Position numbers and translations under genes: made by a program | Shown here: positions 4,019 to 33,446 of the stretch, piece by piece | Numbering within the stretch: position 1 is the first letter of the stretch | Layout: each line of letters begins with the position of its first letter | Notes under the pieces: generated by a model | The model's database searches: none | What the model was told of the DNA's origin: nothing | The model's input: only the letters and a program-made list of their open reading frames with translations | Virus record (IMG/VR): IMGVR_UViG_3300048687_000085 | Coordinates: 1 to 37,813 of that record | Origin: a virus | Length of the DNA stretch: 37,813 bases | Direction: 5' to 3' (one strand)

Positions 4019-5230
4019 TTGGCCGGTAACTCTCTCTTAACGATGAGCATGATCACTCGCGAAGCTGCGAGGATCTTAACCAACAACCTCTGTTTTACGA
4101 AGCAGATCAGTACCGTCTATTCAGATCAGTTCGCCCGCAGCGGTGCCAAGATCGGCAGCGTACTAAATATACGCAAGCCACCCAAGTACATCGGTAGAAC
4201 AGGCCGTGTGTGTGCCGTTGAAGATGTTGTCGAGACGTCAGTGCCTCTCGCCTTGACGACGCAGTTCGGTGTGGATCTATCCTTCACGTCAGCCGAGCTC
4301 GCGTTATCGATTGACGACTTCAGCAAACGCATTTTGAAGCCCGCGGTAGCAGTCGTTGCGAATAAGATCGACTTCGACATGATGGGCTTGTACACATCAG
4401 TTCCGAACGTAGTCGGCACCGCAGGAGTTGTCCCGAACACGCTGCTTACCTATCTGATGGCGGGCGTGGCCCTCGACGACAATATGGCCCCTCGCGATAA
4501 CCAACGTGCCGTCGTTGTAAATCCGATCCAGCAAGCCACTATCGTCGATGCCTTGAAGGGCTTGTTCCAATCAGCCGATCAGATCGAAGACCAATACGAA
4601 AAGGGCACGATGGGCATCACGGGCGGATTCAAGTGGTGTATGGATCAGAATACCCGCGTCCATACTGCAGGCCCCTATGGCGGCGCCCCGATTGTCTCGG
4701 GTGGCTCACAAGTAGGCAGCAACTTGCTTGTCTCGGGCTTCACCGCAGCCGCGGCATCTCGCCTGAAGAAAGGCGACATGTTCACCATCACGGGCGTGAA
4801 CGCCGTCAATGGACAGAACCATCAGGACCTCGGGTATCTCCGCACCTTCACCGTAACCTCAGACGTGAGCTCGGCAGCGGACGGCACGGCTACCATCCCG
4901 ATCTATCCGCCGATTGTCGCCACCGGCGCAACCCAGACCGTGACCGCTTCCCCGGCCGGCGGCGCTCCGCTCACCATGACCTTCGCCGCGAACTCGAAGA
5001 CCGCGCAGGCGCTCGCATTCCATAAGGACGCCTTCACCTATGCCACGGCTGATCTACCCCTGCCAGATGGCGTGGACATGGCTTCCCGTGTCAGCGACGA
5101 CCAACTCGGCGTCTCGGTCAGGATGATTCGTCAGTACACGATCTGCGACGATGCTTGGCCAACAAGATTAGACGTTTTATACGGAATCGCGCCGATCTAT
5201 CCAGAATTGGCATGCCGCATTATCAGCTAA
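4019..5230 (+). CDS. P22-type major capsid (coat) protein
   Basis: A 403-aa P22 gp5-type coat protein (P22: 430 aa), which builds the icosahedral shell on the scaffold. The start MAGNSLLTMSMITREAARILTN is typical: helix-forming, then Asn followed by long beta stretches. The middle (residues 215-320: GGFKWCMDQNTRVHTAG, SRLKKGDMFTITGVNAVN) fits the inserted domain and spine of the HK97 fold. Translation starts at a TTG (4019) preceded by AAGGA, an unusual start codon for the most abundant virion protein. The next gene begins 12 nt downstream. Confidence 0.92.
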   Translation: MAGNSLLTMSMITREAARILTNNLCFTKQISTVYSDQFARSGAKIGSVLNIRKPPKYIGRTGRVCAVEDVVETSVPLALTTQFGVDLSFTSAELALSIDDFSKRILKPAVAVVANKIDFDMMGLYTSVPNVVGTAGVVPNTLLTYLMAGVALDDNMAPRDNQRAVVVNPIQQATIVDALKGLFQSADQIEDQYEKGTMGITGGFKWCMDQNTRVHTAGPYGGAPIVSGGSQVGSNLLVSGFTAAAASRLKKGDMFTITGVNAVNGQNHQDLGYLRTFTVTSDVSSAADGTATIPIYPPIVATGATQTVTASPAGGAPLTMTFAANSKTAQALAFHKDAFTYATADLPLPDGVDMASRVSDDQLGVSVRMIRQYTICDDAWPTRLDVLYGIAPIYPELACRIIS

Positions 5231-7709: not shown

Positions 7710-9824
7710 ATGGCAACTACACTGAACGACCCATGCGTCAGTCTGATGCAAGGGACGCTGGTCCGTCCCTCCGCACGGTATCCGGCCAGCATTGCCGGAG
7801 ACTCGTCGCTGAAGGTAGCGTCGAATCTGGTACAGGCCACGCTGGTCAACGCTGTCCGCGCCGGGGATACGCTATGGACGTTCGGGGATACCTCGCGCCT
7901 GGTCCCGGATATGCTGATGTCGATCGACGCCGAGATTGTCAGCATTACTTCCATCGCCGGCAACGTGGTGACCGTGGTGCGCGGGTTCGATGGCACACAG
8001 CCATCCAGCCACTCCGCGGGACGCACCGCCTTTGCCTACATAGTCGCGTGGCACCACAATGCGCTAGCAGCCGAGATCACAGCGATTGAAACAGCCCTCG
8101 GTGCCAACCTCGGCAACGTCGGGGGCAGTACCGGGGGGGATCTTTCCCTCATCGCCTCGGCCTACGACTTTCCCGCGCAGTCTCCCGGCGGCAACCTGAT
8201 CGTGGGCGCGAACCAGATCACCTTGACCCCGGTCCCGGCAGGCGTGAGCGGGACCAACACGTTTCATTACCTGTATGTCTCCGGGGGAACCGGGACCGCG
8301 GAGGCGTGCTTGATCGTAGGCGGCACCGCGGTATCGGGAGCGGCCTCGGGAACGGTGATCATTCAATGCGCCAATACGCATAGCGGCGGCTGGACGATTC
8401 GCACCGCCACCGCCGGTATCCAGGAAGCGGTGAAGATCGCCGAAGCGGCTACGGACACCGATACCGTCCTGGTGCCTACCGGAGTCACCGTGTACGCGCC
8501 GACCCGCGTGCTAAAGAGCAACATCTCTATCGTGTCGGCCCACGGTGGCTGGTCCGTGGTCACAACACGGGACGCCAGCACCCGGAACATCTTCGAGTTC
8601 GTCGGGGTGCAGTTCGGGAACCTGTTGAACAACTCGTTAGCCGGAGTTCAGATCGAGGTAGCCGCGGGAGTGACCAAGACGGGCGGCGCAAGCGTCTACA
8701 TCGAACGCTGCTTTAACTGCCACGTCAATGAGGTCTGGGCGCAGGATGTACCGGACGGCGTGATCTGCGACAACTCGCCATTGACGTGCATAACCAACTC
8801 GATGTTCCGCCGGCTGAAAGCGGGAACCGGCCGCGGTATCGTGTGGCGCGGGAACGAAGCGCCGTCGAATATGCAGGTTTCAAGTTGCCAGATCGAAGGA
8901 CCGCCGGGGGACAATGCGGCGGCAGGACTGATGATCCAGAATGGCGGTGGGTTCTACATCGACAACACTGATTTCCTGTGGTGCGGCAACGGGTTGTACA
9001 TCACTCCGGGGACGGGCGAGCAGGTGCATTGGGTGTTCTGCGACAACACCTCCTTCGACACCTCGACCTGCGGGATTGCGATCCAGCCCTCGGGCACGGG
9101 TCAGGCATACGGCTTGTTCTTCACCAACTGCTGGACCGCCTCTCACGCGACCAACGGCATACTGGTCAACGCAGCCACGGGAGCGGTAGACACCGTACGG
9201 TTCACCAGCCACCGTTCGATCATGAACGGCAACCACGGGGCCGTTGTCATCGCTGGGCGCAATATCGCCTTTCAGTCGAGCACGTTCTTCGGCAACTCGA
9301 CCGCTACTCCGGGAACGTATCACGGCATTGCGGTTTTATCCGGATGCACGCACATCGATGTCACCGGCAACAACTTCACCCGCCCCCTTGCCTACGGCAA
9401 CGACAGCCACGCTTCGCACATCGCCTTCGGGGTAGGGGCTTCGGACCAGATCACGATCACGGATAACGATGTGTCGGGAGCGGTGGCCGGGGCGGCGCAG
9501 AAGATCGACATGGGCGCGACCGGCCAGACCATCGTGGTCCGTGGCAACCGCGGCGTACCGAGCATTTTGAATATCGCCTCGGCGGCCAGTGTCAACCTCG
9601 GCAACTCGCCGGGGGATGTCTATGCCATCTCGGGCACGGTCCCGATTGCGACGATGACTCCTGCATGGGAGGGGCGCGACGTGTTCCTGTTATTCACCGA
9701 TGTCGCGCCTGGCGGGGTGGCCGCGGGTGGCGCGGCGCCGTCCTTCCGCAAGGCCCGTACAGCGGCGGCGCTCGACTTCGTGCATTGCAAGTTTATCAAC
9801 GGGCAATGGAGTCCGGTGCTTTAA
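7710..9824 (+). CDS. Tailspike with right-handed beta-helix
   Basis: 704 aa (P22 tailspike: 667 aa). Residues 1-140 form a beta-rich N-terminal section (GDTLWTFGDTSRLVPDMLM) likely to bind the virion. Residues about 255-620 show short repeated beta-strand coils with stacked Asn/Cys turns (INNTDF-like FYIDNTDFLWCGNGLYI, VTGNNFTRP, ITDNDVSG), typical of the pectate-lyase-like beta-helix. The last roughly 80 residues form a compact cap. Tailspikes bind and often cleave surface polysaccharide; the glycan and catalytic residues cannot be read here. Confidence 0.85.
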   Translation: MATTLNDPCVSLMQGTLVRPSARYPASIAGDSSLKVASNLVQATLVNAVRAGDTLWTFGDTSRLVPDMLMSIDAEIVSITSIAGNVVTVVRGFDGTQPSSHSAGRTAFAYIVAWHHNALAAEITAIETALGANLGNVGGSTGGDLSLIASAYDFPAQSPGGNLIVGANQITLTPVPAGVSGTNTFHYLYVSGGTGTAEACLIVGGTAVSGAASGTVIIQCANTHSGGWTIRTATAGIQEAVKIAEAATDTDTVLVPTGVTVYAPTRVLKSNISIVSAHGGWSVVTTRDASTRNIFEFVGVQFGNLLNNSLAGVQIEVAAGVTKTGGASVYIERCFNCHVNEVWAQDVPDGVICDNSPLTCITNSMFRRLKAGTGRGIVWRGNEAPSNMQVSSCQIEGPPGDNAAAGLMIQNGGGFYIDNTDFLWCGNGLYITPGTGEQVHWVFCDNTSFDTSTCGIAIQPSGTGQAYGLFFTNCWTASHATNGILVNAATGAVDTVRFTSHRSIMNGNHGAVVIAGRNIAFQSSTFFGNSTATPGTYHGIAVLSGCTHIDVTGNNFTRPLAYGNDSHASHIAFGVGASDQITITDNDVSGAVAGAAQKIDMGATGQTIVVRGNRGVPSILNIASAASVNLGNSPGDVYAISGTVPIATMTPAWEGRDVFLLFTDVAPGGVAAGGAAPSFRKARTAAALDFVHCKFINGQWSPVL

Positions 9825-9825
9825 C

Positions 9826-10608
9826 ATGGCTCAATTCAATACGGCACTCTGGAATCAATCCCTCTGGAACGGCGGCGGCAACGGCAGCGGGATCGGCAGC
9901 GTTACGGCGCGACGGCTGATCTACGATGCCTACCGCGCTTTAGGCGTGCTGCGTCCAGGCCAGCAGACCAGCCCCGAAGGACATGAGGATGCGTTCGGGC
10001 TGCTCAACGACATGGTCGATAGCTGGAACACCGAATCGTTGATGATCCCGGCGTTGCAACGTGCCGTGTACCCGCTGACCGCTGGCGTTGGCTCGTACAC
10101 ATTGGGACCAGGCGGGACACTGAGCGGCGACCGTCCGCAGCGGGTGATGAGTGCGGCTCTGGTCGCGTGTGATTGCGGATGTGGCTGCGCGGACGGCAAC
10201 TGCCGGCAGTTGGTCTTACGCTCCGGGTGGCTGGACTGCGGCTGCAATTGCGGCATCCATATCGACAACGCCTACCCGAACGTCAACGTTCGCATTAACC
10301 CTGCACCCTCCGATGGGCAGGCGCTGGCATTGCAGAGCTGGCAGACGCTGTCAGGCTTTGCGGATCTCGATAGCCAGTATGGCTTCCCTCCCGGTTATGC
10401 GCTGGCGTTGCGATGGGGACTCGCGTTGCAACTTGCGCCGGCCGCTCTCATCATGATGAAGATCCCGCAGAACTTATTGCAGGTGATCGAACAGCGCGCC
10501 ATCGATTCAAAGGCTGCGGTCAAGTCGTTCAACTCGTCGCCGATTCCTGAGATGAATTCCGGATTCGGCGGGTGCGGCTACGATATTTGCTCGGACAGTT
10601 ATTGTTAA
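9826..10608 (+). CDS. gp4-like tail accessory protein 2 with Cys-rich insert
   Basis: 260 aa from the ATG at 9826, one base after the tailspike stop. It shares the gp4 pattern with 6252-6899: VTARRLIYDAYRALGVLRPGQQTSPE, GLLNDMVDSWNTESLMIPA and FPPGYALALRWGLALQLAP. It carries an insert (residues about 110-145) with CDCGCGCADGNC and CGCNCG, eight cysteines that could bind metal, and it ends in a second Cys-containing tail. Two gp4-like genes in one genome suggest subfunctionalised adaptor rings. Role inferred from family resemblance. Confidence 0.72.
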   Translation: MAQFNTALWNQSLWNGGGNGSGIGSVTARRLIYDAYRALGVLRPGQQTSPEGHEDAFGLLNDMVDSWNTESLMIPALQRAVYPLTAGVGSYTLGPGGTLSGDRPQRVMSAALVACDCGCGCADGNCRQLVLRSGWLDCGCNCGIHIDNAYPNVNVRINPAPSDGQALALQSWQTLSGFADLDSQYGFPPGYALALRWGLALQLAPAALIMMKIPQNLLQVIEQRAIDSKAAVKSFNSSPIPEMNSGFGGCGYDICSDSYC

Positions 10609-29162: not shown

Positions 29163-29726
29163 TTGGCAAGCAGGCCCACATTTACAGCGGCGAGACGTAA
29201 GCTATTTCTCAAAGCGTACGTGGCATGCGGCACGATCATCGGGGCGGCCCGCGCTATTGGCGTCTCGGACACCCTCCATTTCAAGTGGATGGAGGATCCG
29301 GAGTACGCCGCGGCCTTCGCAGAAGCAGAGAAACAGGCGATCGCGCACCTCGAGACTGAGCTTTTCAATCGCGTCTACGAGGGAACGGAAGAACCAGTCA
29401 TCTACCAGGGCGAATTATGCTACCAGAAGGACGCTAAAGGTAAGCTGACCAACAAGCCCCTGACGATTCGGCGCAAATCCGACACGCTGCTAATCTTTGC
29501 GCTCAAGGGCAAGAAACCGGACGTCTACCGCGATAACTTCAAAGGGGAAATCAGCCTATCCGGAAACGTAAACGCCAACCACAACGTAAACCTGACCAAG
29601 CTACCTGATGGCGATCTCGACCAGCTCATCACGATCCTCCAATCTGCCGCCATTCCTGGGCCTGGACCGGCCGAACGACCTCTTGAAGGCAGCATTACTG
29701 GAGAAGGAGAACCGGGAGAGAAATAA
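29163..29726 (+). CDS. Terminase small subunit
   Basis: 187 aa (P22 gp3: 162 aa). The N-terminal DNA-recognition HTH is visible (RRKLFLKAYVACGTIIGAAR, AIGVSDTLHFKWMEDPEYAA), followed by an oligomerisation region (EKQAIAHLETELFNRVYEGT). The KGKKPDVYRDNF segment is typical of this family. It selects phage DNA and loads the large subunit. The terL reading frame starts inside it and overlaps by 119 nt. The start is a TTG in good family register. Confidence 0.85.
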   Translation: MASRPTFTAARRKLFLKAYVACGTIIGAARAIGVSDTLHFKWMEDPEYAAAFAEAEKQAIAHLETELFNRVYEGTEEPVIYQGELCYQKDAKGKLTNKPLTIRRKSDTLLIFALKGKKPDVYRDNFKGEISLSGNVNANHNVNLTKLPDGDLDQLITILQSAAIPGPGPAERPLEGSITGEGEPGEK

Positions 29727-30351
29727 GATAGCTCGATTCTTTCCACTGGAAGGGAAATTCCGCCGGGAACTGTACAAACCGCACCTCGAGTTCTTCGCCG
29801 CTGGCGCCCGCTACCGAACCCGGGTGTTTCTTGCAGGCAACCGGACGGGAAAAACTATAGCAGGTGCCTACGAGCTGACATTACATTTGACAGGCGTGTA
29901 CCCGCAATGGTGGGAAGGCAAACGGTTTAGCCATCCGATCCGAGCGGTAGCCGCCTCGGACACGGGTAAGACAACTCGTGAGGTTGTCCAGCAGGAGTTG
30001 TTAGGACAGCCTGGAAGATTCGGCACGGGTATGGTGCCTTACGATCTTCTGGAGAAATCGACCATGCGCTCGGGCGTGACGGATGCGGTCGACACCTGTT
30101 ATATCAAGCACGCGGCCGGCGGATTCAGCACGCTGATTTTCAAGTCGTACGAGCAGAAACGTGAGTCCTTCCAAGGGCTTAGCCTGGAGTTCGGGTGGCT
30201 GGACGAAGAGTGCCCGGAGCAGATATTCGACGAGACGCTCACTCGTATGGCAACTACCGGGGGCTGTTTGGCGCTAACCTTCACCCCGCTTCAGGGGTTG
30301 ACGCCATTGATCCAGCGCTTCCTGCCCGGCGGGATTTCGACGGCGGATTAG
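29608..30351 (+). pseudogene. Terminase large subunit, N-terminal ATPase half (split terL)
   Basis: 247 codons holding the packaging ATPase: N-terminal family motif FLGLDRPNDLLKAALLEKEN, Walker A GNRTGKT (about residue 77), Walker B FGWLDEECPEQ (about 197) and coupling motif LALTFTPLQGLTPLI (about 224). After FLPGG (about 30336) the frame leaves the family and stops. The nuclease half resumes at 31037. Joining FLPGG to the downstream QVMEALKGNAW gives about 499 aa, the length of P22 gp2, with the usual spacing. Whether this is a broken gene, a spliced gene or two working subunits is open. Confidence 0.85.
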
Positions 30352-30591
30352 CACCTCGTAATCCTCGGGTATACCTAAGGCTCGGCATAAGGCTAGCTCA
30401 AATACCCTGACGATCTCGGGCCGTCCCGCTATCTTCATGTAGGCATAGGCGGCTTTCGCATCGGGGTGATTTACGAGTCCGCTCTCATAGTTGCGGAGCG
30501 CGGCCAAACTCAACCCCAGATAGCTAGCCATGGCTTGCTGGCTCAGGCGCAGCGCGGCGCGCAATTCGCGCGCGGCTTGTTGGAATGTCAT
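30274..30591 (-). CDS. HTH protein inserted in terL
   Basis: 105 aa, antisense to terL. Residues 10-36 are an XRE-type HTH (LRLSQQAMASYLGLSLAALR, NYESGLV), followed by AYMKIAGRPEIVRVFELALC and a short tail. The last 26 residues overlap the terL ATPase frame on the other strand, so its original C-terminus was probably overwritten at the junction. It is the only recognisable cargo of the insertion. CATGGAAG repeats flank its start (30589, 30621) and could be its operators. Confidence 0.7.
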   Translation of the reverse strand: MTFQQAARELRAALRLSQQAMASYLGLSLAALRNYESGLVNHPDAKAAYAYMKIAGRPEIVRVFELALCRALGIPEDYEVLIRRRNPAGQEALDQWRQPLKRGEG

Positions 30592-30621
30592 GGAAGACAG
30601 TGTACTTAGTGGTGCTACGAC

Positions 30622-30660
30622 ATGGAAGTCTTAAACGGCAACGCCTGGTTGACGATGTGT
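30622..30660 (+). pseudogene. Extra copy of a terL segment
   Basis: Thirteen codons read MEVLNGNAWLTMC, against MEALKGNAWITLC at 31046-31084 where the nuclease half begins. The protein match is strong, but the DNA differs at many third positions, so this came from a diverged terminase, not a recent local duplication. Upstream in frame is a stop 15 nt away; downstream the similarity ends abruptly. Confidence 0.7.
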
Positions 30661-30701
30661 GTAAGCTACCGCGTGCCTAAAGGCAGCGGCTTTTAACTGA
30701 T

Positions 30702-31058
30702 ATGCAGATTACTCCACACATCGCTAAGGCGGGTGTTGTCACCCTCGGCCAGCTTACAGGTGGCCCTACCGTTATTCACGGCAGCGAAAGCTTAAAAGAA
30801 ATGCGAAACAACGAGCCCAACCGTTTACCCGTTGCGGGGTGCCTTCAGCTCACTTCCAAGTATCTGGCAAACTCCGATCCGAGACAAGACACAGCGGTAC
30901 CGGTACGGCGGGGCGCTTCCTCCGCATGGCTGAAGCCAACGGTTTCCGCGCCAGAGTTTTTATGTAATCTCGCTCTCGGCAATATTAAAGAGAATGCCGA
31001 ACGTGCTCGCAAATTAGCTGAGTACATCGAGGTTCATTGCAAGTTATGGAAGCCTTGA
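30702..31058 (+). CDS. Unrecognised open frame within the terL insertion
   Basis: 118 aa: MQITPHIAKAGVVTLGQLTG, a Pro/Arg-rich middle and a helical end (NIKENAERARKLAEYIEVHC). It runs 12 nt past the point where terL resumes. The underlying sequence also folds into successive short hairpins (GGGTG..CACCC near 30730, GGCCA..TGGCC near 30747, CCGT..ACGG near 30768), so it may be RNA rather than coding. No homing endonuclease motif seen. Confidence 0.3.
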   Translation: MQITPHIAKAGVVTLGQLTGGPTVIHGSESLKEMRNNEPNRLPVAGCLQLTSKYLANSDPRQDTAVPVRRGASSAWLKPTVSAPEFLCNLALGNIKENAERARKLAEYIEVHCKLWKP

Positions 31059-31804
31059 AGGGAAATGCGTGGATTACCCTTTGTACTTGGGACCAGATAC
31101 CTCATCTGGATGAAGAGGCAAAAGCCACCCTCCTTAGCAGCTACCCGGATTACCAGCGTGACGCCAGGTCGAAGGGTGTACCGAGCCTCGGTTCAGGAGC
31201 GATCTACAAAGTCGCGGAGTCCGAGATCACGATCGACGATATCCCCATCCCGGCCCACTGGCCGAGAGCGTACGGATTCGACGTCGGGTGGAGATGGAGT
31301 GCCGCGGTATGGGGAGCCCTCGACCGCGACAACGACACGCTGTACGTCACCGCGGAGCACTACCGTTCGGAAAGCGAGCCGGTGATCCACGCAGAAGCCA
31401 TCAAGGCACGAGGAGCGTGGATCAAGGGAGCGATAGACCCGGCAGCTCGGGGACGCGGCCAGATCGACGGGCGGAACCTGCTGGACATGTATAGGGATCT
31501 CGGACTCGACCTTGTGCCCGCGGAGAACAGCGTCGAAACCGGAATCTACGAACTCCTGATGCGGATGACCAGCGGCCGCCTGAAGATCTTCAAGTCCTGC
31601 CAGAACCTGCTGGCCGAGTACAGATTGTATAGAAGGGATGAGCGTGGCCGGATCGTGAAAGAGCGCGATCATGCTCTGGATGCACTGAGGTACATGCACG
31701 GCCATTTTATAGAGATCTGCGCCACCCAGCCGGCCCCCCAGAAGGAGAAGCCGGTCTCGGCCTGGGCCTCAGCGGGTAGCTTTAGTACCGGATGGATGGG
31801 GTAG
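31037..31804 (+). pseudogene. Terminase large subunit, C-terminal nuclease half (split terL)
   Basis: 255 aa from TTG 31037 (or ATG 31046). It starts at the end of the ATPase linker (TWDQIPHLDEEAKATLLSSY, then RDARSKGVPSLGSGAIYKV) and holds the whole RNase H-like nuclease: acidic residues in YGFDVGWRWSA (about 88), IDPAARGRGQIDG (about 133) and ERDHALDALRYM (about 214). All three catalytic Asp are present, so selection has kept the domain. No strong Shine-Dalgarno precedes the start. The protein would be the headful nuclease, if made. Confidence 0.85.
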
Positions 31805-31835
31805 CAAATGGATGTACACTATCCAAGACTGAGGT

Positions 31836-31905
31836 TACGTCGGGCCTGGTTACGTCGGGTCGGGTGACGCGAGGTAAGGTGGCGCAGGGTGACGTCAGGT
31901 AAGGG
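31836..31905. repeat. Degenerate 5-nt periodic repeat, left block
   Basis: About 14 pentamers of the form N-G/C-G-T/C-N in unbroken 5-nt register (aggtt acgtc gggcc tggtt, then acgtc gggtc gggtg acgcg). It ends in aggtaaggg, which can act as the Shine-Dalgarno of the gene at 31927. Confidence 0.8.
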
Positions 31906-31926
31906 TAATGTGATATAACACTGCCG

Positions 31927-32493
31927 ATGGCAGTTACTGCAATCTGCAGTTTTGAAAGCCTCAGTCCCCTATCGTTCTCGCGGCATTACACGGTCGAGAA
32001 AACCCAGAAGGAATCCCCCCTTGATTACGAGAAGCGCACCTGGCGCGAGAAGTGCCATGTAAACGAGGATGGGTTTGTCTTCATCCCGCCGATGGCGTTC
32101 AAGCTCTGCCTGGCGGAAGCCGCGAAGTACCGCAGTGAGCGCATACCGGGTAAGGGTACATCGACGTACACCAAGCATTTCGAGGCCGGCGTGCTGGTGC
32201 TCGAGCCGCTCGTGCTTCCGATCAAGAAGGAGGATGTCCAGGGGGAATGGCTGTTCCTGCCCTCCGATGGACGGCGCGGCGGGGGCAAGCGGGTCGAGCG
32301 CTGCTTCCCAGTAGTTCCGCACTGGTCTGGCGATGTGACGTTCTATGTCCTCGACGCCACGATCACGGAGGATGTGTTCCGGGAGCATGTCGTTGAGATG
32401 GGCAACTTCATTGGTTTGTTGCGGTTCCGTCCGAGAAACAATGGTTATTATGGACGGTTCACATTGAAGAATCTGGTTTGGCGGGTTGAGTAA
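31927..32493 (+). CDS. Unknown protein flanked by pentamer repeats, weakly RAMP-like C-terminus
   Basis: 188 aa. Segments: EKTQKESPLDYEKRTWREKC, then GFVFIPPMAFKLCLAEAAKY, GTSTYTKHFEAGVLVLEPLV and, at the end, GNFIGLLRFRPRNNGYYGRF. The closing Gly-rich GxxIGxxRxRPxNxGxxGRF loop followed by a beta-strand recalls the Gly-rich loop of RAMP (Cas5/6/7-like) folds, but this is one motif and could be chance. The FIPPMAFKxCLxxAAKY part resembles where Cas7-like proteins insert a helix. It is not near CRISPR repeats or other cas genes. Likely a nucleic-acid-binding phage early protein. Confidence 0.5.
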   Translation: MAVTAICSFESLSPLSFSRHYTVEKTQKESPLDYEKRTWREKCHVNEDGFVFIPPMAFKLCLAEAAKYRSERIPGKGTSTYTKHFEAGVLVLEPLVLPIKKEDVQGEWLFLPSDGRRGGGKRVERCFPVVPHWSGDVTFYVLDATITEDVFREHVVEMGNFIGLLRFRPRNNGYYGRFTLKNLVWRVE

Positions 32494-32501
32494 GTGTTGC
32501 T

Positions 32502-32918
32502 TAGGTCAGGCAAGGCCAGGTGTGGCAGCGTGACGTTTGGCAGGGTGCGGTAAGGTAAGGATTCTACGGTGCGGTGCTGTTACGCGACGTGCGTTAAGTT
32601 AACGCCGGGTTTGGTGGCGTCTGGTCCAGCAACGTAAGGTAAGGGATTTTGTGGTCCGGTGACGTGTGGCGAGGTGGCGTGAGCCTAGGTGTCGTGAGGT
32701 AAGGTGGCGTCTCGTAAGGTAAGGGATTTATGGTGTGGTGCGGCGCGGTCGCGTCAGATACGGTAGGGCTTGGTCGGGTCTGGTGCGGTAAGGTAAGGGA
32801 TTTTCTGGTGTGGTCCGGTGACGTGAGACTGGGCAAGGTCGGGTACGACACGGTGTGGTGAGGTATGGCTAGGTGTCGTCGGGTCTCGCTGGTCGGGTTT
32901 GGTCCGGCAAGTTAAGGT
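32502..32918. repeat. Degenerate 5-nt periodic repeat, right block
   Basis: About 80 pentamers of the form NNG(T/C)N, typically GGT-centred, with few register slips. A longer word, GGTAAGGTAAGG then GATTT, recurs about every 80 nt (near 32549, 32634, 32715 and 32788), and a final TTAAGGTAAGGG lies 1 nt before the ATG at 32925. The opposite strand is open for 85 codons as a Ser/Thr/Pro/His-rich peptide, which the periodicity alone explains. No gene is believed here. Confidence 0.85.
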
Positions 32919-32924
32919 AAGGGC

Positions 32925-33446
32925 ATGCAATTTGAGATCAAGCGGTACCCCCAATGGAAACAACTCTATGACGCAGCTACTCCCCTGATCGAAGAGGGGA
33001 TGCGGCAGTTCACCTACGAGGAGCTGTCGAACCTCGCTGGCATGGATATCACCTCCGACGCCGGCCGGTCGCAGTTCTACCGTTTCCGCAAGACGCTCCT
33101 GCGAGAGAAAGCCTTGTGGATGGAGAACGACGTTAAAAAAGGCTACAGCGTGATTGCGGCCAAGGATCAGTCCACATCCGCCTATAAGCGGGTCCGTGCG
33201 GCGAAACGAAAGATCGGCATGGCTACGGCAATCAATTCGTACGTTCGGGCCGAAGACCTGACGCCGGAGCAGCGCTGCATGCAAGCGGCTACCGCGGTAG
33301 TGCTCCATGAGCTCGGCAAGGCGTTCGTGACCACAGGCAAAAAGCTCACGATTGTCGCGAAAGAGATGGGCAAGGTGGACGTGGACCTCGACAAGCTGGT
33401 CGAGTCCATCTCGGGTAAGCCGAGTAAGACTCTGAAGTCCGCCTAA
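32925..33446 (+). CDS. Unknown protein after the pentamer repeat
   Basis: 173 aa. The N-terminal half is helical with a possible winged-helix (MRQFTYEELSNLAGMDITSD, GRSQFYRFRKTLLREKALWM), then a basic linker (AYKRVRAAKRKIGMATAINS) and a helical end (CMQAATAVVLHELGKAF, LTIVAKEMGKVDVDLDKLVE). No family recognised. The ATG lies right behind the last repeat unit TAAGGTAAGGGC, which is its Shine-Dalgarno. Confidence 0.62.
   Translation: MQFEIKRYPQWKQLYDAATPLIEEGMRQFTYEELSNLAGMDITSDAGRSQFYRFRKTLLREKALWMENDVKKGYSVIAAKDQSTSAYKRVRAAKRKIGMATAINSYVRAEDLTPEQRCMQAATAVVLHELGKAFVTTGKKLTIVAKEMGKVDVDLDKLVESISGKPSKTLKSA

What the first reader, a model, noticed from the sequence alone, without database searches (positions are those of the whole stretch)
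31836..32918. Long degenerate pentanucleotide-periodic DNA framing an unknown gene
More than 90 pentamers of form NNG(T/C)N keep a 5-nt register on both sides of the 31927 gene, with a longer word (GGTAAGGTAAGGGATTT) recurring about every 80 nt. Each block ends as the Shine-Dalgarno of the next gene. It is not a simple tandem repeat: the two or three free positions vary widely, so the register is kept while sequence changes. Five bases is half a helical turn, so G-rich faces would alternate. A protein array, recombination substrate, transcript-structure block or slippage-diversified region are all possible.
Basis: seen in the sequence. Interest (0 to 1): 0.85.

Follow-up and report, generated by a model that had tools for sequence, protein, structure and literature searches.

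The report
Phage RNA-guided VIPR system with decoded targets
The strange five-base repeats are guide RNAs of a recently described viral RNA-guided system (VIPR), and two of the six guides can be read as matching essential genes of other phages, while this phage's own copy of one of those genes is spelled differently enough to escape.

Summary
In detail: lag-5 autocorrelation is far above shuffled sequence, and the register is kept in 78 of 80 diverged relatives. It is not a DNA-binding array. The 188-aa gene is a Vipr protein: its profile hits SUSP1 Vipr in the PDB (E 1.6e-9) and its model has the Csm3/Cas7 RAMP fold (Z 12.3). The pentamers are vrRNAs, the guides of VIPR systems (preprint PMC13142463): constant GGY words hold the RNA, and NN pairs read DNA with one skipped base. 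The 173-aa gene is a distant relative of the accessory protein (Vap) found beside 71 of 81 relatives.

Decoding the six window guides with the published rule gave two clear targets: guide 1 spells EYRLYRRDEKGR, a large-terminase motif (95 contigs, 97 in-frame places); guide 3 spells AAYDAKNRFGLP, in the Sak4 annealase (at least 120 contigs, up to 12 of 12 NN). Four other guides gave 0-1 hits. The phage's own terminase keeps the peptide but uses AGA/AGG/TTG codons, so its site matches only 6 of 12.

Known kind, new member. Possibly new: the constant word changes at least 22 times among close relatives (GGC, GAC, CGC, AGT, CTC, AAT...), tracked by Vipr residues E107 and R166.

The parts
31831..31908 (+). 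vrRNA 1 (upstream guide); NN = GA TA CG CT TA CG CG GA GA AA GG AG GA CA; decodes to terminase motif EYRLYRR[DE][DE][KN]G[RS]
   Evidence: pentamer segmentation; 95 viral contigs match, 97 in-frame places
31927..32493 (+). vipr gene, 188 aa, RAMP-fold protein with glycine-rich loop GNFIGLLRFRPRNNGYYGRF; residues E107 and R166
   Evidence: profile vs PDB 36pp SUSP1 Vipr E=1.6e-9; AF2 pLDDT 95.6; Csm3/Cas7 Z 12.3; hhalign vs SUSP1 Vipr 3.5e-11
32499..32563 (+). vrRNA 2 (no target found)
   Evidence: segmentation; pattern scan 0 hits
32568..32650 (+). vrRNA 3; NN = GC GC TA GA GC AA AA CG TT GG CT CC; decodes to Sak4 motif AAY[DE]A[KN][KN]R[FL]GLP
   Evidence: at least 120 viral contigs, in frame, up to 12/12 consecutive NN; target proteins are AAA_24/Sak4
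32653..32730 (+). vrRNA 4 (one chance-like hit only)
32732..32804 (+). vrRNA 5 (no target found)
32807..32923 (+). vrRNA 6, longer, with one 4-nt unit breaking the register near 32887; its 3' end carries the likely Shine-Dalgarno of vap
32925..33446 (+). vap gene, 173 aa, distant relative of the accessory gene found next to vipr in 71 of 81 loci
   Evidence: hhalign E=1e-11; weak similarity to SUSP1 Vap1
31616..31651 (+). the phage's own copy of the guide-1 target in its terminase gene: same peptide region, 6 of 12 NN changed
   Evidence: codon usage; relatives

Best explanation
This is a VIPR locus: vipr and vap plus six vrRNA guides, one upstream and five between the two genes. Vipr, a small RAMP protein related to Cas7/Csm3, coats each transcript with one subunit per five bases by gripping the constant [G/C]G[T/C] word, and presents the two free bases. 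The dinucleotides pair with double-stranded DNA at NN-x-NN-x spacing, the skipped base falling on the codon wobble position. Bound complexes block transcription of genes of competing phages: guide 1 the large terminase, guide 3 the Sak4 annealing protein. The last units with NN = AA, then GG and a T-rich stretch, are a constant 3' cap rather than message. The phage's own terminase escapes through synonymous codons. Shown here: homology, fold, array anatomy, decoded matches, own-site mismatch. Taken from the preprint: RNA binding, skip rule, repression. Inferred: processing, targeting and function in this phage.
For: Sequence and fold. Arrays on the same strand beside vipr in relatives, register kept. 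Vap. Decoding: guide 3 core (18 fixed bases) at least 120 contigs and guide 1 core 95 contigs, whereas cores of guides 4, 5, 6 and 2 gave 1, 0, 0, 0. All 97 guide-1 places and 116 of 120 guide-3 places are in open frames with the skipped base at wobble; matches extend beyond the searched core to 11-12 consecutive NN, while shuffled guides on held sequence never exceeded 9. Own terminase site 6/12; three of three Arg codons facing CG in the guide are AGR (19% genome-wide) and Leu is TTG (24%); the three known-phage relatives with the motif match 8-10 of 12.
Against: No RNA or binding data for this phage. The published system is a preprint, and its supplement could not be read. Identity to SUSP1 Vipr is only about 20%. 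Four of six guides have no target in the searched collections. The same-guide control with other skip lengths was not run on the full viral collection. The own-site codon argument is post hoc (joint chance about 0.002). No structured 3' tail like SUSP1's was found.
Confidence: 0.95

Rival explanations
1. A TRAP-like regulatory RNA: the pentamers are a multivalent binding site through which the 188-aa protein represses or attenuates expression of its own operon, and the free bases carry no information.
For: TRAP also reads triplets every five bases (own knowledge); arrays sit between genes and one ends as a Shine-Dalgarno.
Against: The free bases of two guides spell 12 consecutive codon-1/2 dinucleotides of phage genes; fold and homology are RAMP/Vipr.
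Confidence: 0.02
2. The guides are real but act within the phage's own regulation (self-targeting) rather than on competitors.
For: The guide-1 target family includes the gene directly upstream, the phage's own terminase.
Against: No window guide matches the window itself above chance at any skip; the own terminase site differs at half of the dinucleotides.
Confidence: 0.03
3. Degenerate slippage-diversified repeat DNA without function.
For: Short-period repeats can arise by slippage (own knowledge).
Against: Register and 3' word conserved in phages 52-67% identical in Vipr, while the word itself differs between them; decoded targets.
Confidence: 0.005

Closest known systems
VIPR of Escherichia phage SUSP1 (KT454805.2; PMC13142463; PDB 36pp)
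   Same: Small RAMP protein gene with GGY/NN pentamer arrays on both sides, one guide upstream and several downstream, next to a small accessory gene.
   Different: About 20% protein identity; window word is SGY rather than strict GGY; guides are directly abutting with a short AA-AA-GG-T-rich end instead of a structured pseudoknot tail; five guides lie between vipr and vap rather than after both genes.
Class 1 CRISPR backbone proteins Csm3/Cas7
   Same: RAMP fold with glycine-rich loop; Z 12.3 over 163 residues.
   Different: About 9% identity, single domain, no cas neighbours recognised, five-base instead of six-base periodicity.
TRAP (trp RNA-binding attenuation protein)
   Same: Triplet plus two-base spacer RNA code (own knowledge).
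   Different: Different fold; spacers in TRAP sites carry no message.

Membership tests
VIPR | Vipr protein: RAMP homologue of about 20 kD with RRM core and G-loop | tested here: met
VIPR | Tandem pentamers with a constant GGY word and hypervariable NN, 9-16 per guide, flanking vipr | tested here: met
   (12-16 units in five guides; guide 6 is longer with one register break)
VIPR | Invariable 3' tail after the repeats | tested here: inconclusive
   constant AA-word-AA-word end followed by a T-rich stretch; no structured tail recognised
VIPR | Targets decoded by the 1-nt skip rule, skip at wobble position | tested here: met
   two of six guides
VIPR | Accessory vap gene | tested here: met
   link to SUSP1 Vap1 itself weak
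VIPR | vrRNAs expressed and bound by Vipr; target repression | not testable with these tools
   needs experiment
CRISPR class 1 | CRISPR repeat-spacer array with several cas genes | tested here: inconclusive
   no cas match for the proteins scanned in the window; in PADLOC one relative had a weak Cas5 hit at E 0.036; no dedicated CRISPR-array search was run

The most novel reading that the evidence does not exclude
Within one family of close Vipr relatives the constant scaffold word has been rewritten many times (GGC, GGT, GAC, CGC, GTC, GTT, AGT, AGC, CTC, AAT, CAC), and Vipr reads the middle base through a partnered E107-R166. The VIPR code is then a set of mutually private channels, so that one phage's guides are not loaded by another phage's Vipr, and phages protect their own genes from their guides by choosing other codons for Arg and Leu.
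Probability: 0.4. Interest if true: 0.75.

Novelty: new member of a known kind. Interest (0 to 1): 0.6.

Why it matters
It gives an independent, computational confirmation of the non-contiguous VIPR code in an uncultivated phage far from the two experimental systems, and names two natural targets at the core of phage biology, packaging (terminase) and recombination (Sak4). It suggests why the code suits warfare between viruses: it reads the two conserved codon positions of conserved motifs, and self-protection is possible only through the six-codon amino acids or replacements. The changing scaffold word hints at orthogonal versions of a very small RNA-guided protein and points to two residues to test.

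Tried and rejected
Pfam, NCBIfam and PADLOC gave no usable name for the 188-aa family, and PHROG only an unnamed family. Exact search for the long word found no other viral contig. All 297 detected arrays (275 distinct guides) were tested against held loci with skips 0-3: apart from guides 1 and 3 nothing exceeded shuffled guides; a 9-NN match of a CGC guide from L021 in L141 was judged chance because the skip does not fall on the wobble base of the likely real frame, and the single guide-4 hit L202 does not extend. Rfam found no ribozyme or other RNA family in the window or in 14 relatives, so hammerhead-interspersed arrays were not seen. The Vap model (pLDDT 76) gave only non-specific helical and winged-helix-like matches. 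No other VIPR-flanking locus carried the same terminase motif for a codon comparison. The E107/R166 link is not significant after phylogenetic pairing on supported branches.

Full report
What is there. The window is an uncultivated virus record of 37,813 bases with portal, terminase and integrase genes. Around the 188-aa gene at 31927-32493 lies DNA with a strict five-base register: lag-5 identity 0.50, z = 10.5 downstream and 4.1 upstream against dinucleotide shuffles, nowhere else in the window. In the window's arrays the three word positions carry about 0.9-1.35 bits each, the two free positions 0.05-0.14 bits.

Relatives. A scan of IMG/VR found 104 relatives of the 188-aa protein, 80 kept. 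In 78 of these 80 loci there is period-5 DNA, nearly always directly beside the gene, up, down or after the next gene, on the coding strand. The register is the same, but the constant triplet differs between phages: GGC in 45, GAC 10, CGC 10, AGT 4, CTC 3, GTC 2, and GGT (window), GTT, AGC, AAT once each. Array lengths peak at 12-17 units. Bacterial genome relatives include Porticoccaceae, Competibacteraceae, Geobacteraceae, Rhodospirillales, Methylococcaceae, an FCB bacterium and the cyanobacterium Iningainema tapete, plus a distant archaeal one, with arrays as well.

Identity. A profile of 62 members hits a solved structure named SUSP1 Vipr protein at E 1.6e-9. The AlphaFold2 model (pLDDT 95.6) matches Csm3/Cas7 chains at Z 12.3, 163 residues, about 3.5 A. 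The preprint PMC13142463 describes VIPR: a phage-encoded ancestral RAMP protein and vrRNAs of 9-16 YNNGG repeats whose NN dinucleotides pair with double-stranded DNA with one skipped base, repressing transcription of competing elements. The SUSP1 record shows the same anatomy, and its 195-aa product aligns with our profile at E 3.5e-11. The gene after the arrays encodes a small protein in 71 of 81 loci; the window's 173-aa protein is a distant relative of it (E 1e-11), with weak similarity to SUSP1 Vap1 (E 0.002).

Anatomy. Six guides: one upstream (31831-31908) and five between vipr and vap. Each ends with NN = AA units followed by GG and a T-rich stretch; across 134 such ends in relatives the conservation stops there.

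Decoding. Guide 1 gives E-Y-R-L-Y-R-R-[DE]-[DE]-[KN]-G-[RS]; its core matched 95 contigs, 97 places, all in frame and all in the terminase motif YRLYRR, nearly all with 11 consecutive NN and one with 12. Cores from guides 4, 5, 6 and 2 gave 1, 0, 0 and 0 hits, which calibrates chance. Shuffled guides on held sequence never passed 9 consecutive NN.

Self-escape. The window's own terminase has EYRLYRRDERGR at 31616, but its codons AGA, TTG, AGA, AGG replace CGN and CTN, so it matches guide 1 at 6 of 12 positions. AGR is 19% of Arg codons and TTR 24% of Leu codons in this phage, so this combination has a chance of about 0.002; it is a post hoc test. The nearest known-phage terminases with the motif match at 10, 8 and 10 of 12.

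Word and protein. On a tree of 73 Viprs the word changes at least 22 times. Vipr positions E107 and R166 (the latter in the glycine-rich loop) are invariant in all 50 proteins whose word has a middle G, and are replaced, mostly together (for example L/F, N/T, Q/S), only among the 21 with middle A or T (Fisher 2e-8 and 8e-7 without correction for descent). Some GAC and GTC/GTT proteins keep E and R. Only three independent pairs lie on supported branches, so this is a lead. The preprint speaks of 'GGY/NN motifs, or a related consensus'; its supplement was not readable, so how much of the word diversity is already known is open.

Shown versus inferred. Shown: periodicity, homology, fold, synteny, decoded matches, own-site mismatch. 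From the literature: guide binding, skip rule, repression. Inferred: expression, processing and action in this phage, and that terminase and Sak4 genes of competitors are the selected targets.

Noticed in passing
window 29608-31804: The large terminase gene is split in two (29608-30351 and 31037-31804) by about 680 bases holding a 118-aa ORF with weak endonuclease VII similarity (E 0.0018) and a minus-strand ORF that looks helix-turn-helix-like; no Rfam intron was found. Possibly a homing-endonuclease or intron insertion.
   Followed up: partly
L305 3772-3918 and 4532-4715: A distant archaeal (Pacearchaeota) relative is flanked by arrays whose constant part seems to be only GT with three variable bases per five, perhaps a different code.
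   Followed up: no
L304 696-779 and 1437-1499: Arrays with the word CAC, not seen in other relatives.
   Followed up: no
window 32807-32923: Guide 6 is longer than the others and contains a 4-nt unit near 32887 that shifts the register; it may be a decayed or fused pair of guides.
   Followed up: partly
L071: GGC-type arrays beside vipr plus several further long arrays reported on the other strand across the locus (for example 242-499, 8346-8588, 9589-9891), an unusually large number.
   Followed up: no
L012 9121-9313: A long GGC array about 4 kb away from vipr that repeats parts of the array at 4775-4972, suggesting copying of guide blocks between sites.
   Followed up: no
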